NCBI RefSeq assembly: GCF_001641125.1
Contig: NZ_LWLP01000001.1
Span: 256,156 to 320,155 of the forward strand
Direction of reading: 5' to 3'
Length of the DNA: 64,000 bases
Origin: Arthrobacter sp. OY3WO11
Lineage (GTDB): Bacteria; Actinomycetota; Actinomycetes; Actinomycetales; Micrococcaceae
A program made the position numbers and the translations under genes. The stretch's first letter is position 1. Each line of letters starts with the position of its first letter. The notes below the pieces were generated by a model, which was given only the letters and a program-made list of their open reading frames with translations, was not told the DNA's origin and did no database searches. Positions 27,224 through 44,177 of this stretch are shown piece by piece.

Positions 27224-27628
27224 CTACTCGGCCTTGGCGCGGGCCTTCTTGGCGTCCTTCTTGGCGGATTCTTCCTTGACGCGCTGGGCCTCGGCCCGGA
27301 CGGCGGCATGCGTGGCCCGCTCGGTGACCAGCCACTGCGGGGGAGCCTGCAGCAGCGCGGTGATCTCCGCCGTCGTCAGCGCTTCCTCAACGCCGCCGCG
27401 CGCCAGGCCGCTGATGGAAACGTTCAACTTCTGGGCCACCACCGGGCGGGGGTGCGGGCCGTTGCGGCGGAGCTCGGCAAGCCACTCAGGCGGGTTGGCC
27501 TGCAGTTCGGCGAACTCGGCGCGGGTGATGGTTGAATCCTGGAACTCCTGGGGCGTGGCGGGCAGGTAGATGCCAAGTTTCTTGGCAACAGTGGCCGGCT
27601 TCATGGACTGGGAGTTTGCAGAGGTCAT
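27224..27628 (-). CDS. DUF5997 family protein
   Basis: A 134-aa protein beginning with a short polar leader, then PATVAKKLGIYLPATPQEFQ and NPPEWLAELRRNGPHPRPVVAQKLNVSISGLARGG, which I recognise as DUF5997. The tail is Lys/Ala/Glu-rich and probably helical or disordered. The KLNVSISGLAR segment looks like a small helix-turn-helix, so nucleic-acid binding is possible. It is divergent from a LysR-effector-domain gene with 37 bp between the starts, a pairing I recall from other actinobacteria. Confidence 0.75.
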   Translation of the reverse strand: MTSANSQSMKPATVAKKLGIYLPATPQEFQDSTITRAEFAELQANPPEWLAELRRNGPHPRPVVAQKLNVSISGLARGGVEEALTTAEITALLQAPPQWLVTERATHAAVRAEAQRVKEESAKKDAKKARAKAE

Positions 27629-27665
27629 GCTTCAAGGGTATCCGGGCGGACGGTACTGTGAAGAC

Positions 27666-28433
27666 GTGCCCTCCCACGACATCCCCCAGACAACCGGTCC
27701 CGGTGACCAGGACCAGCCTGCCGGGCAGGCGGAAGACGCCGTTCCCCGCATGCTCCGCATCGCCTATGTGGCCGGCGTAACCCCGGGCAAATGGATCCGG
27801 CGGTGGGAAGAGCGGATGCCGGACGTTCCGCTGCGGGCCTTTATGTCCGACGACGGCGCGCAGGTTGCGGTGCTCCGCGAAGGTTCCGCGGACCTCAGCT
27901 TCGTCCGGCTCCCCGTGGAGCGCGAAGGCCTCAGCGTCATTCCGCTGTACGAGGAGCAGCCGGTGGTGGTGGCGCCCAAGGGACATGAGATTTCCGTGTT
28001 CGAGGAGGTGGCCCTGGCCGACCTCGAACAGGAATCCTTCCTCGACGTGGCTGCACTCGGAGGCCCGGAGCCCGCGCTGCAGGTGGTGGCCACGGGCGCC
28101 GGGCTGGCCATCCTCCCCATGTCCGTTGCCCGGCACTTCAACGTCAAAGACACGGTGGCGCGGCGGCTCACCGGTGCTCCGGCCACGGAAATCGCCGTGG
28201 CGTGGGCTTCGGATTCAACTGATGAAGTGATCGAGGAGTTCATCGGGATCGTCCGCGGACGGACTGCCCAAAGCTCCCGCCAGCCTTCGGCCCAGCCGGT
28301 GAAAACCAAGAAAGAGCCCAAACCGGACCGCCGGGGTACCGGAGCCAAGAAGGCGCCCAAGGTGGCCCAGCGGTACGCGCCGAACCCGGACAAGGGGCGG
28401 GGCAAGGGCTCGCGGAAGAAGGGCAAGCGGTAG
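27666..28433 (+). CDS. LysR-type effector-binding domain protein lacking a helix-turn-helix
   Basis: A 255-aa protein. Residues about 30-195 match the periplasmic-binding-protein-like effector domain of LysR regulators (LRIAYVAGVTPGKWIRRWEER ... GAGLAILPMSVARHFN), but no N-terminal DNA-binding domain exists before it. The last 60 residues are strongly basic (KTKKEPKPDRRG, KGSRKKGKR) and likely disordered. The GTG at 27666 is the first reasonable start; upstream frame overlaps the divergent DUF5997 gene. With that neighbour it may form a two-part sensor; this is inference. Confidence 0.78.
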   Translation: MPSHDIPQTTGPGDQDQPAGQAEDAVPRMLRIAYVAGVTPGKWIRRWEERMPDVPLRAFMSDDGAQVAVLREGSADLSFVRLPVEREGLSVIPLYEEQPVVVAPKGHEISVFEEVALADLEQESFLDVAALGGPEPALQVVATGAGLAILPMSVARHFNVKDTVARRLTGAPATEIAVAWASDSTDEVIEEFIGIVRGRTAQSSRQPSAQPVKTKKEPKPDRRGTGAKKAPKVAQRYAPNPDKGRGKGSRKKGKR

Positions 28434-30799: not shown

Positions 30800-31330
30800 A
30801 TGACCAGCAATCTCGATCCAGATGCCCGCACCAGCTACCGCCTGATTTCTGTGGCGGCCAGGCTGGTGCAGCGGCGCCAGGACGACGCCCTGGCGCACTT
30901 GGGCCTGACCCGCGCGGCTGTGATAGCACTTGAAGGCCTGGCCAGCGGGCCCTTGAACCAAGAACAGCTTGCCGAAACCATACGGGTCCAGAGCCAGACT
31001 CTGGGACGGGTCCTGCTGCGGCTGGAGGGCGCCGGGTACATCACCAGGACGCGCCAGTCCACCGACCGCCGGCAATTCAAGGTGGAACTTACGGAATCAG
31101 GGGCAGCCATCCTGGAGGCCGCGCGTCGGGAAGAAATCAATGCCTACCCTGATGATCCGGACATCGGCTGGAAGGTCCTCAGCGAGGAGCTGGCAAAGTT
31201 CGTGAACGCGCTGCCGGCAAGCCGGAGCCAGGAGGTGCTCCCGTTCGCTCCGCCTGAGCACCGCACTCCGAGGCGCCCCCATGGCGCACGCGGCACCGGC
31301 CTTCGCGGCATGGACCAGTCCGGCCACTAA
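30800..31330 (+). CDS. MarR family transcriptional regulator
   Basis: A 176-aa regulator with a winged helix-turn-helix: LNQEQLAETIRVQSQTLGRVLLRLEGAGYITR (recognition region about residues 52-83) and the wing QSTDRRQFKVELTESG. The C-terminus (about 135-176) is longer than usual and Arg/His-rich. MarR proteins bind palindromes as dimers and release DNA on binding phenolic ligands or on oxidation; no Cys is present here, so redox sensing is unlikely. The nearby TAAGCATGCTTA-type boxes are its probable sites, giving autoregulation and control of the divergent operon. Confidence 0.88.
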   Translation: MTSNLDPDARTSYRLISVAARLVQRRQDDALAHLGLTRAAVIALEGLASGPLNQEQLAETIRVQSQTLGRVLLRLEGAGYITRTRQSTDRRQFKVELTESGAAILEAARREEINAYPDDPDIGWKVLSEELAKFVNALPASRSQEVLPFAPPEHRTPRRPHGARGTGLRGMDQSGH

Positions 31331-31405
31331 GGCGGACTGGCACGGCCGTTCGAGTCGGCGTCTCAACCTGCGCTAAGGCGGTAGCCGCCGGACTATGCCG
31401 GGCTG

Positions 31406-31744
31406 CTAAGCCGAGCAGGCATCCTTGAGTGCCTGGACGGACTCTGCCGGCACCTCGTCTCCGGCTTCCGCAATCTGGCCCAACGGCGTCGTAATTTCAG
31501 CCGGGACGCCAGCAGTGGACGCCGCAGAGACGAGGCCCGCCAGCAGCTGCTTGTCCTCGACGCTGACCAGCCCGTCCTGGACCACAGCGCAGATCTGGCG
31601 GTTCACTTCGGCCGCGCCCGCAGTGGCCACCTTTGAGGCAGCGTCGCTGACGGCATTGCCTGCGGCTTCCTCAACGGCACCACAGCCGGAAAGGAGCAGG
31701 AGCAAGGGAGCGGCGGACAGGACTGCGAGGCGGCGGTTCATCAA
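31406..31744 (-). CDS. Small putative lipoprotein
   Basis: A 112-aa protein with a signal peptide and lipobox LLSGC (Cys about residue 21). The mature part is Ala/Val-rich and helical, with Cys residues near QICAVVQDG and at ALKDACSA that could form a disulphide. Family not recognised. It is located alone between marR and the alditol oxidase gene, 27 bp from the latter's stop, so it may be co-transcribed with it. Confidence 0.65.
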   Translation of the reverse strand: MMNRRLAVLSAAPLLLLLSGCGAVEEAAGNAVSDAASKVATAGAAEVNRQICAVVQDGLVSVEDKQLLAGLVSAASTAGVPAEITTPLGQIAEAGDEVPAESVQALKDACSA

Positions 31745-31771
31745 CCCAGCCTATCGGGTGCGCACAAAGTG

Positions 31772-33028
31772 CTACCGCGCGCTTGCCGCCGGCACCCCCA
31801 GGATGCTGTCCAGCAACCCGTTGCGGAACTTGCCGTCCGGGTCGTGCGCCGATGCCAGCGAACGGAAATCAGCGAAGCGCGGGTACAGCGACTCCCAGTC
31901 GTGCTCCGCTGGGGAGAAGAGCTTGCCCCAGTGCGGACGGGCGCCGAAGGGCCTCAGTAGATTCTCGAGTTCCGGCAGGACCGCTTCCACTTCGGGCTGC
32001 AGCGGCCTCCAGGTGAAGTGCAGGGCAACGCTCTGCTGCCGGTAGAAAGGGCTGAGCCAGAACCCGTCCGCGGCACCTGTACGGATTTCCGAAACAAAAA
32101 GCAGCGGGGCGAGCTTGTCCGCGAGTCCGCGGACTGCCTCGATGGCGGCCGGGGCATGCTCCAGCGGGAGGATGAACTCGCTCTGCAGCTCCTCCCCGTT
32201 GCTCGGCGTGAACTCATGGCGGAAGTGGGGAAGGCGGTCCAGCCACTGGCCGGGTTCATCCAGCTGCAGGGTGCAGTTTTCCGCGGACATGTCCGGCAGC
32301 GGGTGCCGCGGGCTCACAGCGGCGGTGGCGCCGAACAGGGCGTTCAGGGGTGGCTCCGAGTCCAGCGCCTTGAGCCAGACCTGGCTGATGGAATCCCCGG
32401 CATAGTCAGTGAAAAGGCTCACGCTGTAGGCGCTGGACACGAGTTCGTGGAAGCTGGCCAGTGCCCGGTCCCACGGCAGGTTCTCCAGAACGCGCTGGCG
32501 CATCCGGAAGCTCGGCTGGACGGCGAGTTCCAGGCCGGTCACGATCCCCAGGGCGCCGAGCCCCACCACGCTGGCCAGGAATTCGTCGCCATCGGCGCGG
32601 GAGAGGGAAACCTGTTCGCCGGATGGGCGCACCAGGTCGATGGACTGGACTGCTCCGGCCAGGGACTGGTTGTCCACCCCGGAGCCGTGCGTTCCGGTCT
32701 GGACTGCGCCCGCCACGGAAATGTGCGGGAGTGACGCGAGATTGTGAATGGCGGCACCGGACTGTTCCAGGGTCCGGCACAGTTCCCCGTAACTGACGCC
32801 GCCGCTGACCCGCACCGTTGTGCGGTCCGGCGAGAGTTCGATCCGCTGGGGCAGCGCATCCAGGAGCACGTGCACGCCGTCCGTGTCCCCCACGCGGTTG
32901 AACGAGTGCCGCGATCCCAGGGCCTTGACACGCCCGGCGCCGGCCACGATGCCGGCAAGTTCGTCCACCGAGGTTGGCCGCCGGACCTCCGCGGAGGCGT
33001 ATTCAAGGTTCCCTGCCCAGTTCTTCAT
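31772..33028 (-). CDS. FAD-dependent alditol oxidase homologue
   Basis: A 418-aa flavoenzyme of the vanillyl-alcohol-oxidase fold. It starts MKNWAGNLEY, and VKALGSRHSFN supplies His41 for covalent FAD attachment; LPHISVAGAVQTGTHGSG is the second FAD-binding block. The C-terminal domain has FRSLASAHDPDGKFRN. The length equals Streptomyces coelicolor AldO (418 aa), which oxidises terminal hydroxyls of xylitol and sorbitol to aldehydes with peroxide formation. L-gulonolactone-type oxidases are related alternatives. The ATG at 33028 is preferred over 33070 because the family begins there. Confidence 0.85.
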   Translation of the reverse strand: MKNWAGNLEYASAEVRRPTSVDELAGIVAGAGRVKALGSRHSFNRVGDTDGVHVLLDALPQRIELSPDRTTVRVSGGVSYGELCRTLEQSGAAIHNLASLPHISVAGAVQTGTHGSGVDNQSLAGAVQSIDLVRPSGEQVSLSRADGDEFLASVVGLGALGIVTGLELAVQPSFRMRQRVLENLPWDRALASFHELVSSAYSVSLFTDYAGDSISQVWLKALDSEPPLNALFGATAAVSPRHPLPDMSAENCTLQLDEPGQWLDRLPHFRHEFTPSNGEELQSEFILPLEHAPAAIEAVRGLADKLAPLLFVSEIRTGAADGFWLSPFYRQQSVALHFTWRPLQPEVEAVLPELENLLRPFGARPHWGKLFSPAEHDWESLYPRFADFRSLASAHDPDGKFRNGLLDSILGVPAASAR

Positions 33029-33265
33029 CGAGTCGGCTTTCCGGTTGGAGGTGCAAATTGGCTCCCTCAACTGTCAGCGCTAACAATCCCCCTGTCAAGG
33101 CGCGTTCACGCTGCCCGACGGCGCCGGGCCACCGTGCGCCGGGACTGGCTGGCGCATATTCTTCTATCGTTGTAAATTGGCGGGATGACACGTGCGGGCA
33201 CCCCTCCGACGGGATGAAACAGCTGGGACTGCATGCTCGGCTCCGACCTGCCGCTCGCTGACCTT
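33029..33265. other. Non-coding stretch upstream of the alditol oxidase gene
   Basis: This part of the 308-bp gap must contain the leftward promoter of the oxidase gene. A TTTACA on the minus strand (33171-33176) is a -35 candidate, but no convincing -10 accompanies it. No gene is supported. Confidence 0.3.
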
Positions 33266-33304
33266 GGCCTCCCGGGACCGTCGAGCTGGACAGTCCGGGA
33301 GGCC
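33266..33304 (-). terminator. Second hairpin of the polyamine operon terminator
   Basis: GGCCTCCCGGGAC (33266-33278) pairs with GTCCGGGAGGCC (33293-33304) with one bulged G. Confidence 0.5.
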
Positions 33305-33312
33305 TGGAGCGG

Positions 33313-33346
33313 CACCGTATAGCCGGGCTCATCCGGCTATACGGTG
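33313..33346 (-). terminator. Terminator overlapping the amidase stop codon
   Basis: CACCGTATAGCCGG (33313-33326) and CCGGCTATACGGTG (33333-33346) form a perfect 14-bp stem. The amidase stop codon (33337-33339) is inside the right arm. Confidence 0.65.
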
Positions 33347-35181
33347 TCCCGGCCCTTGCGGTGGGTCCCTCCGCCCACGGCGTGCTGTTCTACCGCTTCT
33401 CCCGCACCCCGGCTTAGCTCCCGGGGCGCGGTAGGACTGGTGCGGGGCGGCGGGACCCTGCGCCTGCTGGTAGCTTCAAATGCGGCAGCGAGCCGCAGCA
33501 GGAGTGCATCGCTGTAGGCCCTGCCGGCGAACGTCAGGCCGACGGGCATGGCGATGTCCGCGGCCAGCCCCATGGGAACCGTCACCGTGGGAATGCCGAG
33601 ATGCCGTGGAACCAGGTTGCCGTTGGACACCCAGACGCCGTTGCGCCATGCGAGGTCTGCCGAGCGCTCGTTGCGGTCCGCGTCGGCGGGGCCGACGTCC
33701 GCAGCTGCCGGGAACACCACGGCGTCGAGGCCCAGGCCGTCCATCCACTGCTCCAAGTCAATCCGGCGTGTTTCCTCCAGTCCGCGCAGTCCCTCAGCCA
33801 GGTGGGGTATCGCGGCCAGTTCAGGCACGCCGTTCTTCCGGATCCAGGCGGGGTAGTCGCTGATGTCGTCGTCGAACCCGTGGTACCGGTCCGGCAAGGA
33901 ACCGTCCGGAGCGGGGAAGATGGCGGCACCGTCGACGTCGGCCAGCCGTTTGAGGTGCGGGTCCCCGTTGGCGTCAAGGAAGTCGTTCCAGGCCCAGGCC
34001 GAGAGGTCCACGATTTCCCTGCGAAGGTAGTCGGGGGACACCAGGCCCCTGGTCGAAATGCTGGGGGACCCGGGACGGTCGCCTTCATAGTTGGACACCA
34101 CGGGGAAGTCCACCTCGACGACGTCGGCTCCCGCGGCCTCCAGGTCGCGCCGCGCCGCCTCCCAGAGATCGATGATTGACGCCCTGGTCTCGATCCGCTG
34201 CCCTGTGGGTCCGCCAATCCCCGGAGCAGGGGCCGTTCCGGCATCAGGATCCGCGTTGATGTACATCCGCGGGACCCCAAAGCGCTTGCCGGCCAGGACG
34301 GGAACAGCTGCAGCCCGGTCCGGTGCGGCCAGCTCCAGGTAGGAACCGGGGCGCACCTCGGATGCTTTGGGCAGCTCCACCCAGGGCTGCACCCGCCAGA
34401 AGTCTCCCCGGGTTTCGGCGTCATCGGCCACCACAACATCGAGTACCTCCAGGAGGTCCGACATGGTGCGGGCGTGCGGCACCACCACGTCCATGGTGGG
34501 CACCAGCGGCCAGTTGCCGCGGACTGAGATCACGCCCCGGGACGGGGTGTAGGCGCAGAGTGCATTGTTGGACGCCGGCGCCCGGCCGGAGGACCAGGTT
34601 TCCTCGGCGAGCCCGAACGCGGCGAAGCTGGCGGCGGTGGCCGTTCCGGAACCATTCGAGGATCCGGAGGCGAAGGCGGCGGTGAGATAACCGGCGTTGT
34701 ACGGGCTTTCGGCACGGCCATATACGCCTCGCTGCATACCGCCATTGGCCATCGGGGGCATGTTGGTCAGTCCAATAAGCACGGCTCCGCCTGCGCGCAG
34801 CCGCTCAATGGTGAAGGCATCCTCCTGTGCCACGAGGTCTTTGAACGCCGGGGACCCGGCTGCCACGGTGAGGCCGCGCACCTGGTAGCTGTCCTTGGCC
34901 GTGTAGGGAATGCCGTCCAGGGGTCCGAGCGTTGCGCCCCGGGCCCGGCGTTCGTCCGATGTCCTTGCTTCGGCCACAGCCTCCGGGTTCATCACCACCA
35001 GCGCATTCAAACGTATTCCGGAAGAGTCATACTTCTCGATTCGCTCCAGATACAGGCGCACCAGTTCCTCGCTGGTGACCTCTCCCGCCTCCAGCGCCGT
35101 ACGGAGTTCGCTGATGGAGGCCTCGACGACGTCGAAGCTGCCTTTCGTGACCCGCTTGCCGGCTGTTTCGGCGAGCCTCAT
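33337..35181 (-). CDS. Amidase signature family enzyme
   Basis: A 614-aa amidase. LGPLDGIPYTAKDSYQVRG places the catalytic Lys at about residue 96; ASGSSNGSGTA (about 171-181) holds the cis-Ser; the nucleophile region reads AEETWSSGRAP (about 192-202) instead of the usual GxDTGGS, so this is a divergent subgroup. The C-terminus has GIPTVTVPMGLAADIAMPVGLTFAG. It overlaps the agmatine deiminase gene by 4 bp. In that context it might hydrolyse N-carbamoylputrescine or another amide of the pathway, but the substrate is inferred from neighbours only. Confidence 0.85.
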   Translation of the reverse strand: MRLAETAGKRVTKGSFDVVEASISELRTALEAGEVTSEELVRLYLERIEKYDSSGIRLNALVVMNPEAVAEARTSDERRARGATLGPLDGIPYTAKDSYQVRGLTVAAGSPAFKDLVAQEDAFTIERLRAGGAVLIGLTNMPPMANGGMQRGVYGRAESPYNAGYLTAAFASGSSNGSGTATAASFAAFGLAEETWSSGRAPASNNALCAYTPSRGVISVRGNWPLVPTMDVVVPHARTMSDLLEVLDVVVADDAETRGDFWRVQPWVELPKASEVRPGSYLELAAPDRAAAVPVLAGKRFGVPRMYINADPDAGTAPAPGIGGPTGQRIETRASIIDLWEAARRDLEAAGADVVEVDFPVVSNYEGDRPGSPSISTRGLVSPDYLRREIVDLSAWAWNDFLDANGDPHLKRLADVDGAAIFPAPDGSLPDRYHGFDDDISDYPAWIRKNGVPELAAIPHLAEGLRGLEETRRIDLEQWMDGLGLDAVVFPAAADVGPADADRNERSADLAWRNGVWVSNGNLVPRHLGIPTVTVPMGLAADIAMPVGLTFAGRAYSDALLLRLAAAFEATSRRRVPPPRTSPTAPRELSRGAGEAVEQHAVGGGTHRKGRDTV

Positions 35182-36260
35182 GCCGCGCCTCCCTTTGCTG
35201 CCGGCTGCTGCTGGGTGATGCAGTGGATGCCGCCGCCGAAGGCGAAGATGTCGCGTGCATCCACCAGTTCCACGGTGCGGCCGGGGTAGGCACGCTCCAG
35301 GATGCCGGCGGCGATGGCGTCATTGGGATCGTCGAAGGCGCACAGCACCACCACATTGTTTGCCACGTAGTGGTTGATGTAGGACCAGTCCACGAAGCCT
35401 TCATCGTCCTTCAGCGTGGTGGGGGCGGGGACGTCGAGGATCCGTAGGGGCCGTCCCTGGGCATCCACCTCGCTGGACAGTACGTCCCGCAGTTCCCGGT
35501 AGACCTCGTAGTCCGGGTGGGAGGGGTCGTCCTGCCGGTGCAGCAGGATGGTGCCCGCGCCGGCGAAGGCGGCCACGATGTCCACGTGCCCGCGGGTGCC
35601 GAATTCGCCGTAGTCGCGGGTGAGCCCGCGGGGCAACCAGATGGCCTTGGTGGTGCCCAGGGCAGCGTGGATTTCGGCTTCGACAGATTTCTTTGTGGCG
35701 CCCGGGTTGCGGCCAGGATCCAGTTGGACAGTCTCGGTCAACAGCACGGTTCCCTTACCGTCCACATGGAATCCGCCGCCCTCGTTGACCAGGGAGCTGG
35801 ACCTAGAAGGAACGGAACTTTCCGCCGCGATGGTGCGGGCGACGTCCTGGTCCTTGTCCCACGCGGCCCACTCCTGGGCACCCCACCCGTTGAAAATCCA
35901 GTCCACGGCAGCCAGCGAGCCGTCCGGTTGGTGTACGAATGTGGGTCCGCTGTCCCGCAGCCAGGCGTCATCGAGGGGAACTTCGAGGACGGTGATGCCG
36001 TCGCCGAGCCACTCCCGTGCGGCGGTGGCGTCGCGGGGGTCGGCCACCACAGTGATGGGTTCGTAGCGGGCGATGGTCTGCGCCACCTTGGTCCAGGCGG
36101 CGCGGGCACGGTCCAGGGTTGGACTTCCCGCTTCGCCGAAGGTGTCGTTGGGCGGCGGGAAGGCCATCCAGGTGCCCTGGTGGGCGTCCCATTCAGCGGG
36201 CATGCAGGTTGCAGGTGCCGGTCCGGCGGCGGCTACGGCGGGGGCGGAAGCGGGTTTCAT
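35178..36260 (-). CDS. aguA: Agmatine deiminase
   Basis: A 360-aa member of the guanidine-modifying family. Pathway: agmatine to N-carbamoylputrescine plus ammonia. Motifs: MPAEWDAHQGTWMAFPP, DDAWLRDSGPTF, VNEGGGFHVDGKG, GTRGHVDIVAAF (catalytic His about 225) and the C-terminal GGGIHCITQQQPA with nucleophilic Cys near residue 350. The GH-to-ITQQ block is the agmatine deiminase signature. The start follows AGGAA. It is flanked by an amidohydrolase upstream (44 bp) and the amidase downstream (overlap). No AguB-type nitrilase gene is seen in the window. Confidence 0.93.
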   Translation of the reverse strand: MKPASAPAVAAAGPAPATCMPAEWDAHQGTWMAFPPPNDTFGEAGSPTLDRARAAWTKVAQTIARYEPITVVADPRDATAAREWLGDGITVLEVPLDDAWLRDSGPTFVHQPDGSLAAVDWIFNGWGAQEWAAWDKDQDVARTIAAESSVPSRSSSLVNEGGGFHVDGKGTVLLTETVQLDPGRNPGATKKSVEAEIHAALGTTKAIWLPRGLTRDYGEFGTRGHVDIVAAFAGAGTILLHRQDDPSHPDYEVYRELRDVLSSEVDAQGRPLRILDVPAPTTLKDDEGFVDWSYINHYVANNVVVLCAFDDPNDAIAAGILERAYPGRTVELVDARDIFAFGGGIHCITQQQPAAKGGAA

Positions 36261-36304
36261 CGGTATTCCTGGGTCTCTCGGTCTGGCTTGTGGTGGGGGA
36301 TGTC

Positions 36305-38011
36305 TTAGGCGGGTTGGCCCACGCGGGCACCGTCTGCGGCGGGACGGGCAGCCGGGGAGGCTCCGGCGTCGTACGCCACCTTCCCGCCCACGACCGTGAG
36401 CCGGGCGGAGTTGGTGAGCAGTTCGGCGGCGTCCGCCTGGAGCGGGTTGGTGTCCAGGACGGTGAAGTCTGCCAGGTAGCCGGCCGCGATCCTGCCCTGC
36501 CGGTCCTCGGCCCGGCAGGAGTAGGCAGCATCACGGGTGGCGTGGCAGAACGCGTCGGCAAGCTCCAGGGCGTAGTGGGGAAGGTTCGCTTCCAGCGCGG
36601 GGTCAAGGGCCGAGCGGCGGGTGGCGGCAACGTACATGTTGGGCAGCGGCTGGTGCGGTGCCGTCGGCGCGTCGGTGCTCAGTGCAAGCGTGGCCCCGGC
36701 TTCCGTGAACTCGGTCCAGGGGAAGGCCCGTTCGCAGCGGTGGTCGCCCAGCATGCTGCGCCAGTTGTCCTGGATGGCAGGGTCGGCGTGGACGGGCTGC
36801 ATGGAAGCCACCACGCCGAGGCCGGCCAACCGCAAAACGTTCGCCTCCGTGACTGTTTCCAGGTGTTCGATGCGGTGCCGGCGCTCCCGCGAACCGTTGC
36901 GGCGGTACGCCTCTTCTAGCGCATCCAGGGCAATGTCCGACGCGTCGTCGCCGATGGCGTGCAGGGCGATCTGCAGCCCGGCGGCGTCCGCCGCAACCAC
37001 TACCGGCGTCAGTGATGCGCGGTCCCAGATGGGCTCGGCGCTGCTGCCGTCCACGTACGGCTCCTTCATGGCGGCGGTGCAACTGTCGATGACTCCGTCA
37101 ACCACCAGCTTGATACCGCAGATCTGCAGCCAGTCATCGTGCAGTTCGGCTGCGAGCCGTGCGGCCTTGGCCACCTGTGCCAGGTTGGCAGACTCCGCTT
37201 CGTGGCGGGCCACGAGGATGTGCCCCTTGACCCGAATGGGCAGGGTGCCGTCCCGGCGTTCCATGGCGCGGCGAAAAGCGGTCAGGTCGTCGTCCTGCAC
37301 GGCCATGTCCACGGCACTGGTGACGCCAACCGCCAGATAGTTGGCGAAAGCCTCCTCCAACTGGGCGTCGCGGTCCTGGTCGGTGGCATGCGCCGCGAGG
37401 GCGGGCCAGACGATTTGCTGGGCTGCCGTTTCGTACAGCATGCCGTCAGCCTGGCCAGTCTCCGGGTCCCGGCCGATGCGTCCGCCGATGGGGTCCGGGG
37501 TGCCCCCATCGATGCCCAGTTCAGCCAGGGCCGCGCTGTTGACCCAGACAGAGTGCAGGTCATTGGCGTCTAGGTAGACCGGCCGGTCCGGGACCGCTGC
37601 ATCCAGCAGCTGGCGGGTTGGGGCCTGCCCGTCCAGGGCACTGTAGAGCCAGCCGGCGCCGAGGATCCGCGGAGCATTGGTTGCCGCGGCAGCGTCCCGG
37701 AGGCGCTGCTGCAGGTCGGCGAGGCTGACGGCGTCCCGCAGCTGGACCTTCTGCAGGGCCTGGCCCGTCATCAGCAGGTGGGTGTGCGCGTCGACGAAGC
37801 CGGGCAGGACAAAGCGGCCCGCAAGGTCCACTTCCGCGGCACCTTCACCCGCCGCTTCGCGGGCGCCGGATTCGTCTCCCACGTGGAGGAACTGCGATCC
37901 TTCCACGACGAAGGCTTCCGCGGGAGCGCCGTCGGCGGTGAACACGGCGGCGTTGGTGTAGAGCGTGCGTGCAGGCAAGGGAGTGCTTTCCTTGTGGTCG
38001 GGGACGGGCAT
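36305..38011 (-). CDS. Metal-dependent amidohydrolase, YtcJ-like
   Basis: A 568-aa enzyme of the amidohydrolase superfamily. FVLPGFVDAHTHLLMTG gives the HxH metal motif (about residues 76-78); a Lys/His set follows in the middle (LQICGIKLVVDGVIDSCTAAM, LQIALHAIGDDASDIALDALEEA, with HRIEHLE) and DAPTAPHQPLPNMYVAA near the end. YtcJ-type enzymes hydrolyse N-substituted amides or formamides. The ATG shares one base with the MFS transporter stop, so the genes are coupled. The specific substrate is unknown. Confidence 0.85.
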   Translation of the reverse strand: MPVPDHKESTPLPARTLYTNAAVFTADGAPAEAFVVEGSQFLHVGDESGAREAAGEGAAEVDLAGRFVLPGFVDAHTHLLMTGQALQKVQLRDAVSLADLQQRLRDAAAATNAPRILGAGWLYSALDGQAPTRQLLDAAVPDRPVYLDANDLHSVWVNSAALAELGIDGGTPDPIGGRIGRDPETGQADGMLYETAAQQIVWPALAAHATDQDRDAQLEEAFANYLAVGVTSAVDMAVQDDDLTAFRRAMERRDGTLPIRVKGHILVARHEAESANLAQVAKAARLAAELHDDWLQICGIKLVVDGVIDSCTAAMKEPYVDGSSAEPIWDRASLTPVVVAADAAGLQIALHAIGDDASDIALDALEEAYRRNGSRERRHRIEHLETVTEANVLRLAGLGVVASMQPVHADPAIQDNWRSMLGDHRCERAFPWTEFTEAGATLALSTDAPTAPHQPLPNMYVAATRRSALDPALEANLPHYALELADAFCHATRDAAYSCRAEDRQGRIAAGYLADFTVLDTNPLQADAAELLTNSARLTVVGGKVAYDAGASPAARPAADGARVGQPA

Positions 38012-39237
38012 TAGACGATGACCGCCTTGTTGATGCTGTTCGGAAGGTCGGGGGCCGCCTCCCGGTCCATCCGTACGGACAGGCGGGAGATAAGGACCAG
38101 CGGAACCGCCAGGACGAGGGTCATACCTGCCAGGACGTAGCCGAGGATGTCATACCCTGCCGAAGCCGAGACGAAGGTTCCAAAGAACGGGGCGAACGAG
38201 GATCCGATCAGGTAGACGCCGAGCACCGGGGCGGACCAGCGCCCGGATGCGTCCAGAGCGGCCGCGGTGGCCACGATGTAGATGAAGGTCAGCATGTAGA
38301 TGGTGTTCCAGGCGACAATCACGGCCATGTAGAGGCCCGGCTCAGTGACGGTTCCGGACAGCATCTTCAATGCTGCCCCCGCCACCAGCGCTACGGCCAG
38401 CGGCGCTGTCCTGCCGAGCCGGCGCCCGGCAAGCCCGATGAGGCCCGAGGCCAGGAGCCCGCCCAGCGTGGAGAGGCTGAGGACCAGCCCCATGCCGGTT
38501 TCGTCGAGCTGCGCCTGGTCGGCTCCCATGGTGGCGGCCACAGCCCAGAGGGAGTCCTCACTGAGGGCCCACAGGGCGAAACAGGCCAGCAGGCCGAGGC
38601 CGGCGAGGGTTGTGGTCCGGGAGTCCTTGCCCGGCGCGGCGGCTGCCGGTGGCCCATCTGCGGTACCGGCAGGGCTGCCAGGCAGCCAGGCCGTGGTGAA
38701 CAGGGCTGCCAGGGCAAGTCCCGCGAGCAGGCCGAACGCACTGCCCATGCCGGCGCCCAGGGCAGGAATGATGAAAAGGACCACCGAAACGATCGCGCGG
38801 TTGGTGAAGCCGCTGATGCCGGAGGCGCGGTCCGGGTTACGGAGGGCGCCCAGGGCTGCGCCGCCAGCCGAGACGGCACCGCCCGCGCCGAGCCCGCCGA
38901 GCAGGACACCGGCGACGACGACGGGAACGGACGGGATAAAGGCCGCGGCCGCGAAGCCAGCCGCAGCAAGCCCAAGGCCGGCGCGGGCCACTGGGTGCCT
39001 TCCGTTGCCGGATGCCAGCCTGGACGTCAGCAGGCATGCCACGGCACAGGCGAGCAGCGAGCCGGTCATCAGGGTGCCGGCTTCGGTGTCCGAAAAGCCC
39101 AGTTCGCCGGTCAGGGCGACGATCATGACGGGAACCAGATTGGCGGTCATGAAGCCGACAACGCTGATGCCGAAGACGGATACGGCCCGGCGCGGCGTCA
39201 GGGCCACGCGCCCTGTGGTGAGTTCGTCCTGGGACAT
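38011..39237 (-). CDS. MFS transporter
   Basis: A 408-aa protein with about twelve transmembrane helices in two halves and a central charged loop (about 185-205, PAGTADGPPAAAAPGKDSRTT region). It is the first gene of the leftward operon to amidohydrolase, aguA and amidase. The start follows AAGGAG. It may bring in the compound used by the enzymes downstream (an amine or guanidine), which is inference. Control: the TGAATGGCCTTCA palindrome lies 39 bp before the start. Confidence 0.85.
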   Translation of the reverse strand: MSQDELTTGRVALTPRRAVSVFGISVVGFMTANLVPVMIVALTGELGFSDTEAGTLMTGSLLACAVACLLTSRLASGNGRHPVARAGLGLAAAGFAAAAFIPSVPVVVAGVLLGGLGAGGAVSAGGAALGALRNPDRASGISGFTNRAIVSVVLFIIPALGAGMGSAFGLLAGLALAALFTTAWLPGSPAGTADGPPAAAAPGKDSRTTTLAGLGLLACFALWALSEDSLWAVAATMGADQAQLDETGMGLVLSLSTLGGLLASGLIGLAGRRLGRTAPLAVALVAGAALKMLSGTVTEPGLYMAVIVAWNTIYMLTFIYIVATAAALDASGRWSAPVLGVYLIGSSFAPFFGTFVSASAGYDILGYVLAGMTLVLAVPLVLISRLSVRMDREAAPDLPNSINKAVIV

Positions 39238-39275
39238 GGACTTCTCCTTGCTGGAATGGAGTGAATGCCGTCACA

Positions 39276-39294
39276 AAATGAATGGCCTTCATTT
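39276..39294. promoter_or_regulatory. TetR-type operator before the MFS operon
   Basis: AAATGAA (39276-39282) and TTCATTT (39288-39294) are exact inverse repeats around TGGCC. Same arms and spacing as the site at 23288-23308. A half-site TGAATGCC follows at 39262-39269. Confidence 0.75.
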
Positions 39295-39323
39295 ATTATG
39301 GAGATGCACCCGGTCCAGCACAA
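39295..39323 (-). promoter_or_regulatory. Promoter of the MFS-amidohydrolase-aguA-amidase operon
   Basis: On the minus strand TTGTGC (39318-39323) and CATAAT (39295-39300) are 17 bp apart. The operator starts directly after the -10 box, so repressor binding would block initiation. Confidence 0.6.
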
Positions 39324-39341
39324 GGTTTTGGTGAAAGCCTT

Positions 39342-39965
39342 TCAGAAACTTATTCTTGTTACCTGCCGGATCCCGGTTAGAATCATCTCCAGTCCGAAGG
39401 CGAAGGCGGCATCGGAGCGCTCGGCAGGGGAACCCAGTCCGGCGATGGCTGCGGTCAGGGCAGGGAATTGGCCAGGCGGGGGAGACCAGACGACGTCGGG
39501 AGCAGTCAGTTCCAGTGCGGAGCCAAGGACCAGGTAGTCCACCGTGGTGATGGCCGGGATGACAACCGAAGGGTGCAGGCCTGCCTTGCCCAGGACTACC
39601 GCCATATCCTCGTAGATCCGCATCACGCCCAGGTCCTGCACGGTCTGGGTTACCAGGAGCGGCACCAGCCGGGGGTGGTCCACCAGGCAGTCTCGGTATT
39701 CGTGAGCCAGCGTCCGAAGTGCCTCGTCCCAGGGGAGGCTGGCAGGATCGAGGTGCCTCCGCCCAGCGAACTCGGAGAAGACGAGCCCGCGCATCAGCTC
39801 GATGATGTGTTCCCGGCTGTCAATGTGGTTGTAGAGGGAGGCCTGGCTGACGCCAAGTTCCTTGGCCACTTTGGGAAAACTGAAATCTCCGGTGGAGTCA
39901 ACCAGGGACAGGGCGGCGCGGATGATGGCATCGACGGACAGCAGCGGTGATCGCGGGCGCGGCAT
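39342..39965 (-). CDS. TetR family regulator (paralogue of the one at 22498)
   Basis: A 207-aa regulator. The helix-turn-helix is FSFPKVAKELGVSQASLYNH (about 28-47); the helical C-terminal domain has TVDYLVLGSALELTAPDVVWSP, similar to VALESFIFGSAYDVTAPEDIF of the other TetR protein. The ATG at 39965 follows TAGGAG; a longer frame upstream is the shadow of the hydrolase gene. Its stop is 47 bp before the operator-bearing region of the MFS operon, which it likely regulates. Confidence 0.88.
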   Translation of the reverse strand: MPRPRSPLLSVDAIIRAALSLVDSTGDFSFPKVAKELGVSQASLYNHIDSREHIIELMRGLVFSEFAGRRHLDPASLPWDEALRTLAHEYRDCLVDHPRLVPLLVTQTVQDLGVMRIYEDMAVVLGKAGLHPSVVIPAITTVDYLVLGSALELTAPDVVWSPPPGQFPALTAAIAGLGSPAERSDAAFAFGLEMILTGIRQVTRISF

Positions 39966-39993
39966 TGGAACTCCTAGGCACGGGGCGGTCCGT

Positions 39994-40707
39994 TCAATGT
40001 AGCTGGCCTTTGCGGTCCACGGCGGCAAGGATGGCCCGGGCCAGTTCCGCTGGCTTGGTGAACTGGGGCCAGTGGCCCGTTGGCAGGTCCACGTACTCCA
40101 CGTCGCGCATCCTCGAAAGCTCCGCCACGAAGGGATGGCCGGCCTGGATCCACTCCTGCAGGAGCGAGGTCGGGAATTCGCACGCAATGATGGTGGCCGG
40201 CACGTCGTAGCGCCGCTCGTCATGGAGATGCTGCCGGCCGTAGGCAACGCCCCTGGGCTCCGGAATGGCCCGTGCCCGGAAAGCCTCGCGAAGGCCGTCG
40301 TCGAGGTCCACCAGGTCGGCGTCCTCGAATGCTTCCCACGGCGGCAGCGGAACGTCGTCGCCGTCGGCCGGCAGTTCATCGTTGATCACGCCGCCCTCAC
40401 CCAGCGGTCCGCTGTCCACGTAGATTGCCCGTGCCACCCGGTCCGGGCGGGAATCCAAGGCGCCGTGGATGATGGCTCCGCCGCCGGAATGGCCCACCAG
40501 CACCACCTTGTTGTCCAGGGCATCAATGGCGGCAACTACGGCATCGATGTGGTCCTGCAGGCCAATGCCGGAGCGGTCTGCGTCGACGGATTGCATTCCG
40601 GGAAGCGTGAGCGGATGAGTGCGGTGGCCAGCCGCCTCCAGGGCAGGCGTTATCTCCTCCCACGAGGAAGCATCCAACCAGAAACCGGGAACCAGGATGA
40701 TGTCCAT
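39994..40707 (-). CDS. Alpha/beta hydrolase
   Basis: A 237-aa hydrolase of the salicylate-esterase-like type. MDIILVPGFWLDASSWEEI starts the fold; VVLVGHSGGGAIIHGA carries the nucleophilic Ser (about residue 75); a C-terminal His lies in VDLPTGHWPQFTKP (about 215). It precedes the TetR gene by 28 bp in the same direction, so the two may be co-transcribed. Substrate unknown; an ester or lactone is likely. Confidence 0.85.
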   Translation of the reverse strand: MDIILVPGFWLDASSWEEITPALEAAGHRTHPLTLPGMQSVDADRSGIGLQDHIDAVVAAIDALDNKVVLVGHSGGGAIIHGALDSRPDRVARAIYVDSGPLGEGGVINDELPADGDDVPLPPWEAFEDADLVDLDDGLREAFRARAIPEPRGVAYGRQHLHDERRYDVPATIIACEFPTSLLQEWIQAGHPFVAELSRMRDVEYVDLPTGHWPQFTKPAELARAILAAVDRKGQLH

Positions 40708-40934
40708 GATGGAACCCTACTCCCGGAGAAGGGGGGTGGCGCGTGATCCCGGTCGGGGTGCGGGGGCGGCGGAGCACCAGGGCTTTCGCGGAGCCTTGGC
40801 GGGCAGTAAAGTCCCCGGAGTAGCCTGCGTTTCTCCGACGTGACCTGAGAGGGAGCCCTCATGAAACGGCCAGAATGCCTTTGCGGACCCGCCGGCCCTG
40901 TTCCCGGTCCGGCCAGGATGGGAGGTGTGGCGGC

Positions 40935-42509
40935 ATGAGCGGCCCAACGTCGCCGGGCCAGGCCGCGCCGGCGAAGCGTGAAACCTTTTCCTCCCGCCGG
41001 CTCTTTATCCTCTCGGCCATCGGCTCGGCCGTGGGCCTGGGCAATATCTGGCGCTTCCCCTACATTGCCTATGACAATGGCGGCGGCGCCTTCCTGATTC
41101 CGTATCTGGTGGCATTGCTGACGGCCGGCATCCCGCTGCTGTTCCTCGACTACGCCGTGGGCCATAAGTTCCGCGGGTCGGCGCCGCTGGCCTACCGCCG
41201 GCTCCACCGGGCCGCCGAGCCGCTGGGATGGTGGCAGGTGCTGGTGTGCTTCGTCATTGCCGCGTATTACGCAGTGATCATCGCCTGGTCGCTGATGTAC
41301 ACCATCTTTTCCTTCACGGAGGCCTGGGGTGACGACGCCGAGGGCTACTTCTTCGGGAACTTCCTGGCCGTCGCTGAGGCCCCGGGCATCGGCTTCACCT
41401 ACGTGCCGTCCGTCTTCTTTCCGCTCCTGCTGGTCTGGGTCACGGTCATCATCATCATGGTGGCCGGAATCCGCAAAGGCATCTCCCGCGCCAACTCCAT
41501 CCTCCTGCCCTTGCTGATGGTGATGTTCCTTCTCCTGGTGGTCCAGTCGCTCTTCCTTCCGGGCGCAGCGGAAGGCCTGAACGCGTTCTTCACGCCGGAC
41601 TGGGCCGCACTCGCAGACCCCTCTGTGTGGGCTGCAGCCTACGGACACATCTTCTTCTCGCTGTCCGTGGGCTACGGCATCATGGTCACCTATTCGTCCT
41701 ATCTCAAGCGCCGGACGGACCTCACCGGTTCCGGCATGGTGGTTGCCTTTTCCAACTCCGGATTCGAGATCCTCGCCGGCATCGGTGTTTTCGCGGCTCT
41801 TGGATTTATGGCGCAGGCAGCAGGCACCGGCGTGAACGACGTCGTGACCCAGGGCATCGGCCTTGCCTTCGTCGCATTCCCCACCATCGTGTCCCAGGCA
41901 CCCTTCGGCGGCCTGATGGGCGTGCTCTTCTTCGGATCGCTGGTGTTCGCCGGGATCACCTCCCTGATTTCCGTGCTGGAGGTGATCGTTGCCGCCGTCC
42001 AGGACAAGCTTGGCTGGGGCCGGGTCAAGGCTTCAGTGGTGGTCAGCGTCCTGGTGGCAGCCGTCTCCCTGGGCCTGTTCCCCACCGCAACGGGCCTCTA
42101 CCTGCTGGACACCTCGGACGCCTTCGTCAACAGTTTCGGGATCACCCTGGGCGCGCTGGTCACCGTGGTGGTCCTCGCTTGGTTCCTGCGCAAGCTGCCG
42201 CTGCTCTCGGCCCACCTGAACCGCGTCTCAACCATCAGGATGGGGCGGGTGTGGATAGTGCTGGTGGCCGGCGTGGTGCCCCTCGCCCTGATTTACATGG
42301 TGGCCAACGAATTCATCAGCAAGATCTCCACCACCTACGAGGGGTACCCCGAGTGGTTCGTGGGCCTGTTTGGCTGGGGCATGGCCGGCGCGCTGGTGGT
42401 CCTGGCCCTCGTACTGACGGCCATCCCCTGGAGCCGCAGTTCCAAAGCCCACTATGACCCCGAGTACGACGAAGTAGTCAAAGAGGATGCACAGGAGACG
42501 GCACCATGA
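40935..42509 (+). CDS. Sodium-dependent amino-acid transporter, NSS family (MetP-like large subunit)
   Basis: A 524-aa neurotransmitter:sodium symporter with about twelve helices. ILSAIGSAVGLGNIWRFPYI (helix 1) is the sodium-binding signature, and SVGYGIMVTYSSYLKRRTD (helix 6) forms the substrate site. The ATG at 40935 follows GGGAGG. The small gene that overlaps its stop is a MetS-type subunit. In Corynebacterium glutamicum MetP-MetS takes up methionine and alanine, so the same is likely here. It is divergent from the hydrolase gene (227-bp gap, no operator recognised). Confidence 0.9.
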   Translation: MSGPTSPGQAAPAKRETFSSRRLFILSAIGSAVGLGNIWRFPYIAYDNGGGAFLIPYLVALLTAGIPLLFLDYAVGHKFRGSAPLAYRRLHRAAEPLGWWQVLVCFVIAAYYAVIIAWSLMYTIFSFTEAWGDDAEGYFFGNFLAVAEAPGIGFTYVPSVFFPLLLVWVTVIIIMVAGIRKGISRANSILLPLLMVMFLLLVVQSLFLPGAAEGLNAFFTPDWAALADPSVWAAAYGHIFFSLSVGYGIMVTYSSYLKRRTDLTGSGMVVAFSNSGFEILAGIGVFAALGFMAQAAGTGVNDVVTQGIGLAFVAFPTIVSQAPFGGLMGVLFFGSLVFAGITSLISVLEVIVAAVQDKLGWGRVKASVVVSVLVAAVSLGLFPTATGLYLLDTSDAFVNSFGITLGALVTVVVLAWFLRKLPLLSAHLNRVSTIRMGRVWIVLVAGVVPLALIYMVANEFISKISTTYEGYPEWFVGLFGWGMAGALVVLALVLTAIPWSRSSKAHYDPEYDEVVKEDAQETAP

Positions 42510-42643
42510 CACCCATCGCCATCACCATGATGATCATTGCGATCCTCACCGTCTGGGGCGGACTGGCGCTCGCAATGGTCAACCTCAAGAGGCACCCGGA
42601 GGACGAGGGCGCCCTGCCCGAAGAGCACGCACCCGAGCTCTGA
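42506..42643 (+). CDS. MetS-type small subunit of the NSS transporter (45 aa)
   Basis: The ATG overlaps the transporter stop (ATGA, 42506-42509). The product has one hydrophobic helix (AITMMIIAILTVWGGLALAM, residues 5-24) followed by VNLKRHPEDEG, the motif of methionine/alanine-import small subunits. Overlap ensures equal synthesis with the large subunit. Confidence 0.85.
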   Translation: MTPIAITMMIIAILTVWGGLALAMVNLKRHPEDEGALPEEHAPEL

Positions 42644-42680
42644 CCGGTCTGTGGTCAGCACGGCTGCGCCCCTGCCATGG

Positions 42681-44177
42681 TCACGGGGTGGATTGTCCGT
42701 TGCCACTGCTGTTGCGGCCGTTGGCGGCGGGCAGGACGACGGCGTCGGTAACTGCCTTGCCATGGGCGTTCTGGAACACCGCCCGCACCAGGACTGCGGG
42801 CTGCCCGGGCGTCGCGGAAGGCAGCTCAAGAGTTGAGGTGTACGTGCCCTCATCCGTCCGTTTCGTCACGGGCTGGCGGGCTGCTTTCTGCCAGCTTGCG
42901 CCGTCGTCGGACGAGGTTTCCCACACTGCCACCGGACCCGGGGTGCCTGTCGCCGTAGCCGCCACACTGGCTGTGCTGCCCGCCGCCCTGGCCTTTGGCT
43001 GCTTGGAAACCTGCGGCAGTTCCACTGTCTGGTCGAAGGCGGGCCAGCCGTCCACCCAGTCAATTTTCTGGAGGCCAAGGGTGGGGAAGTAGGGGATGTC
43101 CTGGTTGGAGCCGTCGTAGTAGTGGAAGGCCAGGTAATCGCCAAACACGGACTGGCCACCCGGACCGGTGACGGCACCGTGCGAATCCAGGACCACTGAC
43201 CCTCCGCCGCCGAACATGTCGCGGCCGTCCTTGTCCAGGTAGGGGCCCTTGACGGAGGCGGAACGCCCCACGGCCACCTTGTAGGTGGAGTCGGCACCGC
43301 GGCAGCAGGAGTCGAAGGAGACAAACAGGTAGTAGTAGCCGCCGTGCCTGGTGATGTACGGCGCCTCGACGGGGTTGCCTGGCATGAACCGGTCCGCAAT
43401 GTTTACGGTTTTGGACTGCCAGTCAGCCACCGGCTTGCCGCTGGGCCATTCGATGGGCACCAGGAAGATCCCGTACCAGAACGATCCGATGGCCATGTAC
43501 GGTGTGCCGTCGGTGTCCTCGATGATGCCGGCGTCGATCGCGTTGAACGTCTTGCCGGGGTTGTTCGGGTCCAGGCCGGTAGCGGGGGAGGAGACCACCA
43601 GGCCCCGGTCCACCCACTCGTAGTCCGGGTGGGTGGGATCGAGGGTGGTGTTGGTGGCCAGGGCAGTCAGGGACTTGTTGCCGCCAAAGCGCGACGCCGA
43701 GTAGTACAGGTAGTAGGTGCCGTTGTGTTCCGTGATTTCCGGCGCCCACAGGTTGCCGGGGAGCTCGCCGTCGGAGAAGTGCTCATCGATCCAGGCGGGA
43801 ATCCGGTCCCAGACGGTGCCGCTGTACTCCCACGTGGTTCCCTGGTCATGGGAAGACCAAGCCTGGATGGTGCCGCCGTTTTCCCGGTTCACCATGCCTG
43901 TGGAGTAGACGTACCAGGTGCCGTCGTCGTCGATGATGAGGGCTGGATCGTGGATGGGGGAGGTCTGGCCGACGACGGTCTTTCCGCCCGGCAGGTCCGC
44001 CGGCCTGGTGTCGTTCTTTACGGCCGGCGCTGACACCGTCCCAAGAACCTCCGGGGCCGGAGCGGTTGCCCCTATGTGGGGACCGGCCGCCGTCGGGAGC
44101 GCTGCCGCTGTGAGGGTGAGGGCCAGGGCTGCAGCCAATCCTGCAGCGCGGAGCGCCCATGGACGTGACTTCGTCAT
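42681..44177 (-). CDS. Secreted GH43 arabinanase with C-terminal Ig-like domain
   Basis: A 498-aa extracellular enzyme. A signal peptide (about 1-30, LAAALALTLTAAALPTAAG) precedes a five-bladed propeller with the GH43 residues: base Asp in SPIHDPALIIDDDGTWY, Asp in NAIDAGIIEDTDG, acid Glu in NPVEAPYITRHGG. A conserved CC pair (FDSCCRGADSTY) follows. Residues about 385-480 form an Ig-like domain. It likely cuts alpha-1,5-arabinan. ATG at 44177 follows AAGGA (GTG at 44180 is possible). It is divergent from the ABC importer across two operators. Confidence 0.9.
   Translation of the reverse strand: MTKSRPWALRAAGLAAALALTLTAAALPTAAGPHIGATAPAPEVLGTVSAPAVKNDTRPADLPGGKTVVGQTSPIHDPALIIDDDGTWYVYSTGMVNRENGGTIQAWSSHDQGTTWEYSGTVWDRIPAWIDEHFSDGELPGNLWAPEITEHNGTYYLYYSASRFGGNKSLTALATNTTLDPTHPDYEWVDRGLVVSSPATGLDPNNPGKTFNAIDAGIIEDTDGTPYMAIGSFWYGIFLVPIEWPSGKPVADWQSKTVNIADRFMPGNPVEAPYITRHGGYYYLFVSFDSCCRGADSTYKVAVGRSASVKGPYLDKDGRDMFGGGGSVVLDSHGAVTGPGGQSVFGDYLAFHYYDGSNQDIPYFPTLGLQKIDWVDGWPAFDQTVELPQVSKQPKARAAGSTASVAATATGTPGPVAVWETSSDDGASWQKAARQPVTKRTDEGTYTSTLELPSATPGQPAVLVRAVFQNAHGKAVTDAVVLPAANGRNSSGNGQSTP

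What the first reader, a model, noticed from the sequence alone, without database searches (positions are those of the whole stretch)
33337..36260. Agmatine deiminase coupled to an amidase-signature enzyme in place of AguB
N-carbamoylputrescine is normally hydrolysed by AguB, a nitrilase-family amidohydrolase. No such gene is seen here, but an amidase-signature enzyme overlaps aguA by 4 bp and a YtcJ-like amidohydrolase precedes it. The amidase has an unusual nucleophile region (EETWSSG instead of GxDTGGS). One of the two enzymes may be a non-homologous replacement.
Basis: inference. Interest (0 to 1): 0.6.

Follow-up and report, generated by a model that had tools for sequence, protein, structure and literature searches.

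The report
Agmatine operon with alternative hydrolase AguY
A soil actinobacterium appears to break down agmatine with a known but recently described substitute enzyme, AguY, in place of the usual AguB; the unexplained part is a neighbouring hydrolase and transporter that travel with the pair in some relatives.

Summary
The amidase (window 33337-35181, minus strand) overlaps an AguA-family deiminase by 4 bp, and the 4.5-Mb genome has no AguB over the curated cut-off. The 'odd' EETWSSG motif is invariant in 12 aligned family members, identical in the closest solved structure, Tse8 (404 of 571 residues identical), and keeps the nucleophilic serine. Li et al. 2025 (Biochem J, PMC12283126) showed that amidases of this family from Shewanella oneidensis and the actinobacterium Microterricola gilva, named AguY, hydrolyse N-carbamoylputrescine to putrescine, and that the toxin Tse8 derives from them. 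In 60 of 80 related loci the amidase lies directly beside the deiminase. The YtcJ-like amidohydrolase is not the replacement: five close relatives have AguA-AguY without it nearby. It belongs to a TetR-MFS-YtcJ module that recurs near AguA-AguY in three arrangements (7 of 22 other YtcJ loci); the AguY paper's text does not mention it and its substrate is unknown. The AguY-linked deiminases score below the agmatine-deiminase cut-off (9 of 9 tested), and the actinobacterial ones were not assayed in that paper.

The parts
33337..35181 (-). aguY: amidase-signature enzyme, 614 aa, predicted N-carbamoylputrescine amidohydrolase. Predicted catalytic triad K96, cis-S174, nucleophile S198
   Evidence: NF005127/PRK06565 1057.9 bits, cut-off 575; Tse8 6te4 full-length match, 875.7 bits, 404 of 571 identical; K96, S174, S198 invariant in 12 aligned members
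35178..36260 (-). aguA-like deiminase, 360 aa, predicted agmatine -> N-carbamoylputrescine + ammonia
   Evidence: PF04371 352.7 bits; best PDB matches are agmatine deiminases 3h7c/1vkp; D103, E160, H225, D227, C347 invariant in 62 of 62 aligned deiminases from AguY loci, window included; below TIGR03380 cut-off
35178..35181 (-). ATGA overlap of deiminase stop and amidase start (translational coupling likely)
   Evidence: sequence read directly
36305..38011 (-). YtcJ-like metal-dependent amidohydrolase, 568 aa; accessory, substrate unknown
   Evidence: PF07969 311.9 bits; metal-ligand-like H76, H78, K301, H351, H383, D447 invariant in 23 aligned sequences, window included (roles inferred); none of the 23 NCBIfam families matched is over its cut-off
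38011..39237 (-). MFS transporter, 408 aa, shares 1 bp with the YtcJ-like gene
   Evidence: PF07690 58.7 bits; TAATG junction
39342..39965 (-). TetR-type regulator, probable start at 39965 (207 aa) inside a longer open frame
   Evidence: PF02909 50.5 bits; TetR_N 20.1 bits, below its cut-off of 24; start inferred

Best explanation
This is an agmatine-utilisation operon of the AguA-AguY type. [quoted passage not shown] The translationally coupled amidase, AguY, an amidase-signature enzyme with a Ser-cisSer-Lys triad, hydrolyses N-carbamoylputrescine to putrescine, ammonia and CO2. It replaces the unrelated nitrilase-family AguB. Shown for homologues by others: the AguY reaction. Shown here: family membership, retained catalytic residues, conserved gene pairing, no AguB over the cut-off. 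Inferred: that this particular pair acts on agmatine; that it serves catabolism of imported agmatine (searches for the two PLP-dependent arginine-decarboxylase folds gave only a diaminopimelate-decarboxylase-like protein); that the TetR-MFS-YtcJ genes upstream supply or process a related substrate.
For: Amidase: NF005127 1057.9 bits; Tse8 is the closest solved relative, 404 of 571 identical, about as close as the assayed M. gilva AguY is to Tse8 in the paper (69%). Purified S. oneidensis and M. gilva AguY hydrolyse N-carbamoylputrescine, Km 0.74 and 0.07 mM (PMC12283126). AguA is directly beside AguY in 60 of 80 loci, 59 upstream on the same strand and one downstream; in 44 of those 59 the first candidate start overlaps the deiminase stop by 4 or 1 bp (recounted). 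Deiminase catalytic residues invariant in 62 of 62. No AguB over cut-off; the only two carbamoyltransferases are of ornithine and aspartate type. Arthrobacter sp. Rue61a grows on agmatine as carbon and as nitrogen source although its pathway is tabulated as 'incomplete' (PMC3534580, passages), which an unannotated AguY would explain (inference; its genome was not searched here).
Against: The window's own proteins are not assayed. The deiminase is below the TIGR03380 cut-off (296.3 of 381.8), and so were all 8 AguY-linked deiminases tested from other loci (251.7-305.5 bits; all eight were taken at their tblastn bounds, 326-361 aa, which may lower scores somewhat). The paper's co-expression used P. 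aeruginosa AguA, with E. faecalis AguA alone as a further control, not an actinobacterial one. 19 of 80 AguY loci have no deiminase in the fetched stretch, and 3 of these 19 genomes show no PF04371 gene at all. The genome also has an agmatinase-like gene over its cut-off (TIGR01230 222.5 of 174.3), so the pathway may not be the only route from agmatine. No tree with the assayed AguY sequences was made.
Confidence: 0.87

Rival explanations
1. The deiminase-amidase pair has the same two-step chemistry (guanidine -> ureido -> amine) but on a different substrate than agmatine, for example a longer or acylated alkylguanidine released by the YtcJ-like enzyme.
For: All 9 AguY-linked deiminases tested, window included, fall below the agmatine-deiminase cut-off; TetR-MFS-YtcJ sits directly upstream in the window and in four of 80 loci; no actinobacterial deiminase of this type was assayed in the parts of the AguY paper that I read.
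Against: M. gilva AguY has Km 0.07 mM and kcat/Km about 640,000 per M per s for N-carbamoylputrescine, which fits agmatine as the upstream substrate; best PDB matches of the deiminase are agmatine deiminases; an Arthrobacter strain grows on agmatine.
Confidence: 0.09
2. The YtcJ-like amidohydrolase is the N-carbamoylputrescine hydrolase and the amidase does something else.
For: It is a metal amidohydrolase with its predicted metal ligands intact and lies in the same operon.
Against: Near relatives L049, L050, L051, L053 and L054 keep AguA-AguY with no YtcJ match in the fetched stretch; AguY homologues have the activity; 13 of 22 other YtcJ-like genes have neither AguA nor AguY in the fetched stretch.
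Confidence: 0.02
3. The amidase is a Tse8-like antibacterial effector rather than a metabolic enzyme.
For: 404 of 571 residues identical to Tse8.
Against: It overlaps a deiminase gene in what looks like a metabolic operon; Tse8 is described as a derivative nested inside AguY and lying beside an immunity gene; the host is an actinobacterium (type VI secretion is known from Gram-negative bacteria, recalled; its genes were not searched for here).
Confidence: 0.01

Closest known systems
AguY, noncanonical N-carbamoylputrescine amidohydrolase (Li et al. 2025, PMC12283126)
   Same: Amidase family of about 570-610 aa, gene directly downstream of an AguA gene, also in Actinomycetota; high identity to the family member Tse8
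   Different: The window operon adds TetR, MFS and a YtcJ-like amidohydrolase; the paper's main text has no occurrence of TetR, MFS, YtcJ or Arthrobacter (figures not held). The window protein was not assayed.
Tse8 (P. aeruginosa type VI effector, PDB 6te4, 6yhv)
   Same: Full-length homologue, identical EETWSSG region
   Different: Tse8 is secreted, sits beside an immunity gene and not beside aguA
AguB (nitrilase-family N-carbamoylputrescine amidohydrolase, TIGR03381)
   Same: Same predicted reaction
   Different: Unrelated family; none over the cut-off in this genome
YtcJ-like / Amidohydro_3 enzymes (PF07969)
   Same: Family and predicted metal ligands of the accessory enzyme; PMC13081902 (passages seen) reports a metallo bile salt hydrolase of this family and lists N-substituted formamide deformylase among its characterised members
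   Different: No curated NCBIfam family matches over its cut-off; substrate unknown

Membership tests
AguY (PRK06565/NF005127 amidase) | Score over the curated family cut-off | tested here: met
   1057.9 bits, cut-off 575
AguY (PRK06565/NF005127 amidase) | Gene adjacent to an aguA-family gene | tested here: met
   4-bp overlap in the window; adjacency in 60 of 80 loci
AguY (PRK06565/NF005127 amidase) | Ser-cisSer-Lys catalytic triad of amidase-signature enzymes | tested here: met
   K96, S174, S198 invariant in 12 aligned members; assignment to catalytic roles rests on alignment with amidases and on recalled knowledge of the family; no structural model was made
AguY (PRK06565/NF005127 amidase) | Groups with the assayed S. 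oneidensis and M. gilva enzymes in a tree | not tested
   Neither organism was among the 80 loci; the tree of 78 rows holds no assayed member
AguY (PRK06565/NF005127 amidase) | Hydrolyses N-carbamoylputrescine | not testable with these tools
   Needs an enzyme assay
AguA agmatine deiminase (TIGR03380) | Score over the curated equivalog cut-off | tested here: not met
   296.3 of 381.8 bits
AguA agmatine deiminase (TIGR03380) | Catalytic Cys, His, Asp and Glu of the guanidine-modifying fold | tested here: met
   D103, E160, H225, D227, C347 invariant in 62 of 62; roles recalled from the family
AguB (TIGR03381) | Nitrilase-family gene over the AguB cut-off in the genome | tested here: not met
   Best 96 of 410 bits
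Putrescine carbamoyltransferase (TIGR04384) | A carbamoyltransferase over that cut-off | tested here: not met
   Two PF00185 proteins only, ornithine and aspartate type; the former has 277.4 of 500 bits for TIGR04384

The most novel reading that the evidence does not exclude
The TetR-MFS-YtcJ genes form a separate, mobile uptake-and-release module: the transporter takes up a conjugated agmatine or putrescine (acylated or formylated), the YtcJ-like enzyme cleaves the amide, and the freed amine feeds AguA-AguY. The operon would then serve to scavenge a conjugated guanidine from plants or soil, and the divergent AguA subfamily might accept it directly.
Probability: 0.2. Interest if true: 0.45.

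Novelty: new member of a known kind. Interest (0 to 1): 0.25.

Why it matters
It indicates that the AguA-AguY pair is widespread in soil Micrococcaceae and may fill a step that annotation leaves open: a 2012 Arthrobacter genome paper tabulates agmatine use as 'incomplete' although the strain grows on it (passages). The family is still named only 'amidase' in NCBIfam release 20. The recurring TetR-MFS-YtcJ module gives one concrete, testable extension, and the unassayed substrate of the AguY-linked AguA subfamily is a real gap behind a much-used annotation.

Tried and rejected
YtcJ as the AguB substitute: rejected because AguA-AguY persists without it in five near relatives. A nitrilase-family AguB elsewhere: none over the cut-off. 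Putrescine transcarbamylase route: only ornithine and aspartate transcarbamylases. Arginine decarboxylase: PF01276 none, PF02784 one protein that is diaminopimelate-decarboxylase-like (best NCBIfam match lysA at 229.2 of 297.9 bits for the matched stretch only); the pyruvoyl type was not searched. Absence of AguB as evidence: weak, since 0 of 296 class genomes have one over the cut-off, with one near miss at 335.9 of 410 bits. RNA elements: none at gathering score in 31000-43000. Promoter and terminator patterns in 32900-40100: three, all on the plus strand, none on the operon's strand. Clustering of neighbour genes was muddied by shadow frames in GC-rich DNA; I used it only to pick ten neighbours of AguY genes without a local deiminase, where nothing polyamine-specific appeared. 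A paper search for agmatine deiminase, amidase and Arthrobacter gave 4 papers, of which I looked into one (PMC3534580). No structure prediction was made.

Rows dropped before counts: L025 (AguY with an internal stop) was left out of alignment A1, so A1 holds 12 of the 13 members over the cut-off. The tree holds 77 of the 80 loci plus the window; L077, L081 and L096 are missing because their match ran past a stop codon. Alignment A2 holds the window, 20 of the 22 other YtcJ matches (L141 and L142 were not put in) and L052 and L068; L063, L073, L089 and L117 were dropped after one search failed.

Full report
What is there. On the minus strand the window holds, in order, a TetR regulator (about 39965-39342), an MFS transporter (39237-38011), a YtcJ-like amidohydrolase (38011-36305), a deiminase of the agmatine-deiminase family (36260-35178) and an amidase (35181-33337). 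The deiminase and amidase overlap by 4 bp (ATGA); the transporter and the YtcJ-like gene share one base.

The amidase. It matches the NCBIfam amidase model NF005127 (PRK06565) at 1057.9 bits against a cut-off of 575. The best solved relative is Tse8 of Pseudomonas aeruginosa (6te4, 875.7 bits, query 16-586); I counted 404 identical positions over these 571 residues from the printed match line. In the alignment with amidase 5ewq it keeps the nucleophilic serine (S198); K96 and the cis-serine S174 are also invariant. So the motif marks a family and is no sign of a lost or new active site. Catalytic roles are assigned from recalled knowledge of amidase-signature enzymes.

What the family does. 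A search for 'AguY' returned 45 papers; of the 20 listed, the other 19 look unrelated by title. A search for N-carbamoylputrescine together with 'amidase signature' returned none.

The genome. It has 4.5 Mb in three contigs and is 99.99% complete. AguB: best match 96 bits of 410; five nitrilase-family proteins, none named AguB. Carbamoyltransferases: one ornithine and one aspartate type. Agmatinase-like: one protein over the TIGR01230 cut-off, besides a formimidoylglutamase. Arginine decarboxylase: none of PF01276, and the one PF02784 protein looks like diaminopimelate decarboxylase. This fits use of imported agmatine, with the reservation that the pyruvoyl-type decarboxylase was not searched. 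A caution on the AguB argument: none of 296 genomes sampled from the class has AguB over the cut-off, while 13 of 296 have the amidase over its cut-off.

Conservation of the pair. By tblastn, 61 of the 80 loci hold a deiminase. It is directly upstream on the same strand in 59, directly downstream in one (L074), and 5.4 kb upstream with 37% identity in one (L113). In 44 of the 59 the first candidate amidase start overlaps the deiminase stop by 4 or 1 bp (recounted). Of the 19 genomes whose locus has no deiminase in the fetched stretch, 16 have PF04371 genes elsewhere and 3 have none; some of these stretches are cut short by contig ends (L125, for example, has under 0.8 kb upstream). In the tree of 78 amidases the window groups with Micrococcaceae, nearest L050 (Pseudarthrobacter sp. 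GA104, 88% identity); loci without a deiminase cluster, notably the 5 Brevibacterium rows and the 8 Streptomycetaceae rows.

The deiminase. It scores 296.3 bits on the agmatine-deiminase equivalog model, below the cut-off of 381.8, and so do the 8 AguY-linked deiminases that I tested of the 61 found (251.7-305.5 bits, at tblastn bounds). All 62 aligned sequences, window included, keep D103, E160, H225, D227 and C347. They look like working deiminases; that agmatine is the substrate is inferred from AguY's substrate and from gene pairing. The AguY paper's experiments used the P. aeruginosa and E. faecalis deiminases.

The YtcJ-like enzyme. Its predicted metal ligands are invariant in 23 aligned sequences, window included, and no curated NCBIfam family fits over its cut-off. 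It is not needed for the pair: L049, L050, L051, L053 and L054, near relatives of the window, have AguA-AguY without a YtcJ match in the fetched stretch. TetR-MFS-YtcJ stands directly upstream of AguA in 4 of the 80 loci (L052, L063, L068, L089) and nearby in the opposite direction in L062; four more loci (L073, L100, L117, L125) hold a YtcJ relative at 29-59% identity without the full module in order. Searching 149 genomes of the family gave 23 matches at E up to 1e-100 in 21 genomes, the window's own included. Around the other 22 I fetched 12-19 kb: 7 have both AguA and AguY, in three arrangements: same order (L161), divergent (L162, L177) and convergent (L169, L170, L172, L174); 2 have AguA alone (L179, L181); 13 have neither, one of these on a short contig (L164). 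The four convergent cases bear one genus code and the seven four genus codes, so they are not all independent. Repeated linkage in different orders suggests a functional tie with the pair, with YtcJ as an accessory. Enzymes of this Pfam family can cleave N-acyl amides: PMC13081902 (passages) reports a metallo bile salt hydrolase and lists N-substituted formamide deformylase among characterised members. The AguY paper's main text has no occurrence of YtcJ, MFS, TetR or Arthrobacter; its figures could not be seen. My search for YtcJ with amidohydrolase gave 8 papers; none of the titles and abstract openings listed concerns agmatine.

Physiology in print. Arthrobacter sp. Rue61a grows on agmatine as carbon and as nitrogen source, while its pathway is tabulated as 'incomplete' and the second step is ascribed to AguB (PMC3534580, passages); which step was missing was not stated in what I saw. 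An AguY gene would explain the gap; a Paenarthrobacter genome among the 80 loci has the pair (L064). Rue61a itself was not searched.

Verdict. What remains open is the substrate of the AguY-linked AguA subfamily and the role of the TetR-MFS-YtcJ module.

Noticed in passing
L065, L072, L078, L083, L123 (Brevibacterium); L092, L094, L095, L103, L106, L108, L114, L116 (Streptomycetaceae): AguY homologues with no deiminase in the fetched stretch form two tight clades. In L072 the next genes downstream include PEP-mutase-like and glyoxalase-like ones, and in L094 a TetR gene lies upstream. They may have changed substrate or partner.
   Followed up: partly
G305 (L105), G313 (L125), G314 (L126): Three AguY-bearing genomes without any PF04371 match, so AguY there may not follow an AguA of this family; L125 sits near a contig end and the completeness of these genomes is not given.
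   Followed up: no
G301:C1:42145-63680, G310:C34:120702-127355, G309:C13:13691-25246: Streptomycetaceae genomes among those searched carry up to 8 PF04371 matches, several in clusters; whether their substrates differ is unknown.
   Followed up: no
L157:3652-9001 (plasmid of Arthrobacter sp. ERGS1:01): A divergent AguY relative (57% identity) lies on a plasmid with a cytosine-permease-like gene, a TetR gene and an agmatine deiminase family gene on the opposite strand.
   Followed up: no
L025: AguY match with one internal TAG stop in one genome (G168): perhaps a pseudogene or a sequencing error.
   Followed up: no
window 31772-33070 (-): FAD-linked sugar/alditol oxidase-like gene 0.27 kb downstream of aguY, kept near the pair in 5 Pseudarthrobacter/Arthrobacter loci (L049, L050, L051, L053, L054); probably only chromosomal context.
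   Followed up: partly
window 27570-28433 (+): LysR-type substrate-binding domain without a recognised N-terminal DNA-binding domain in the frame scanned.
   Followed up: no
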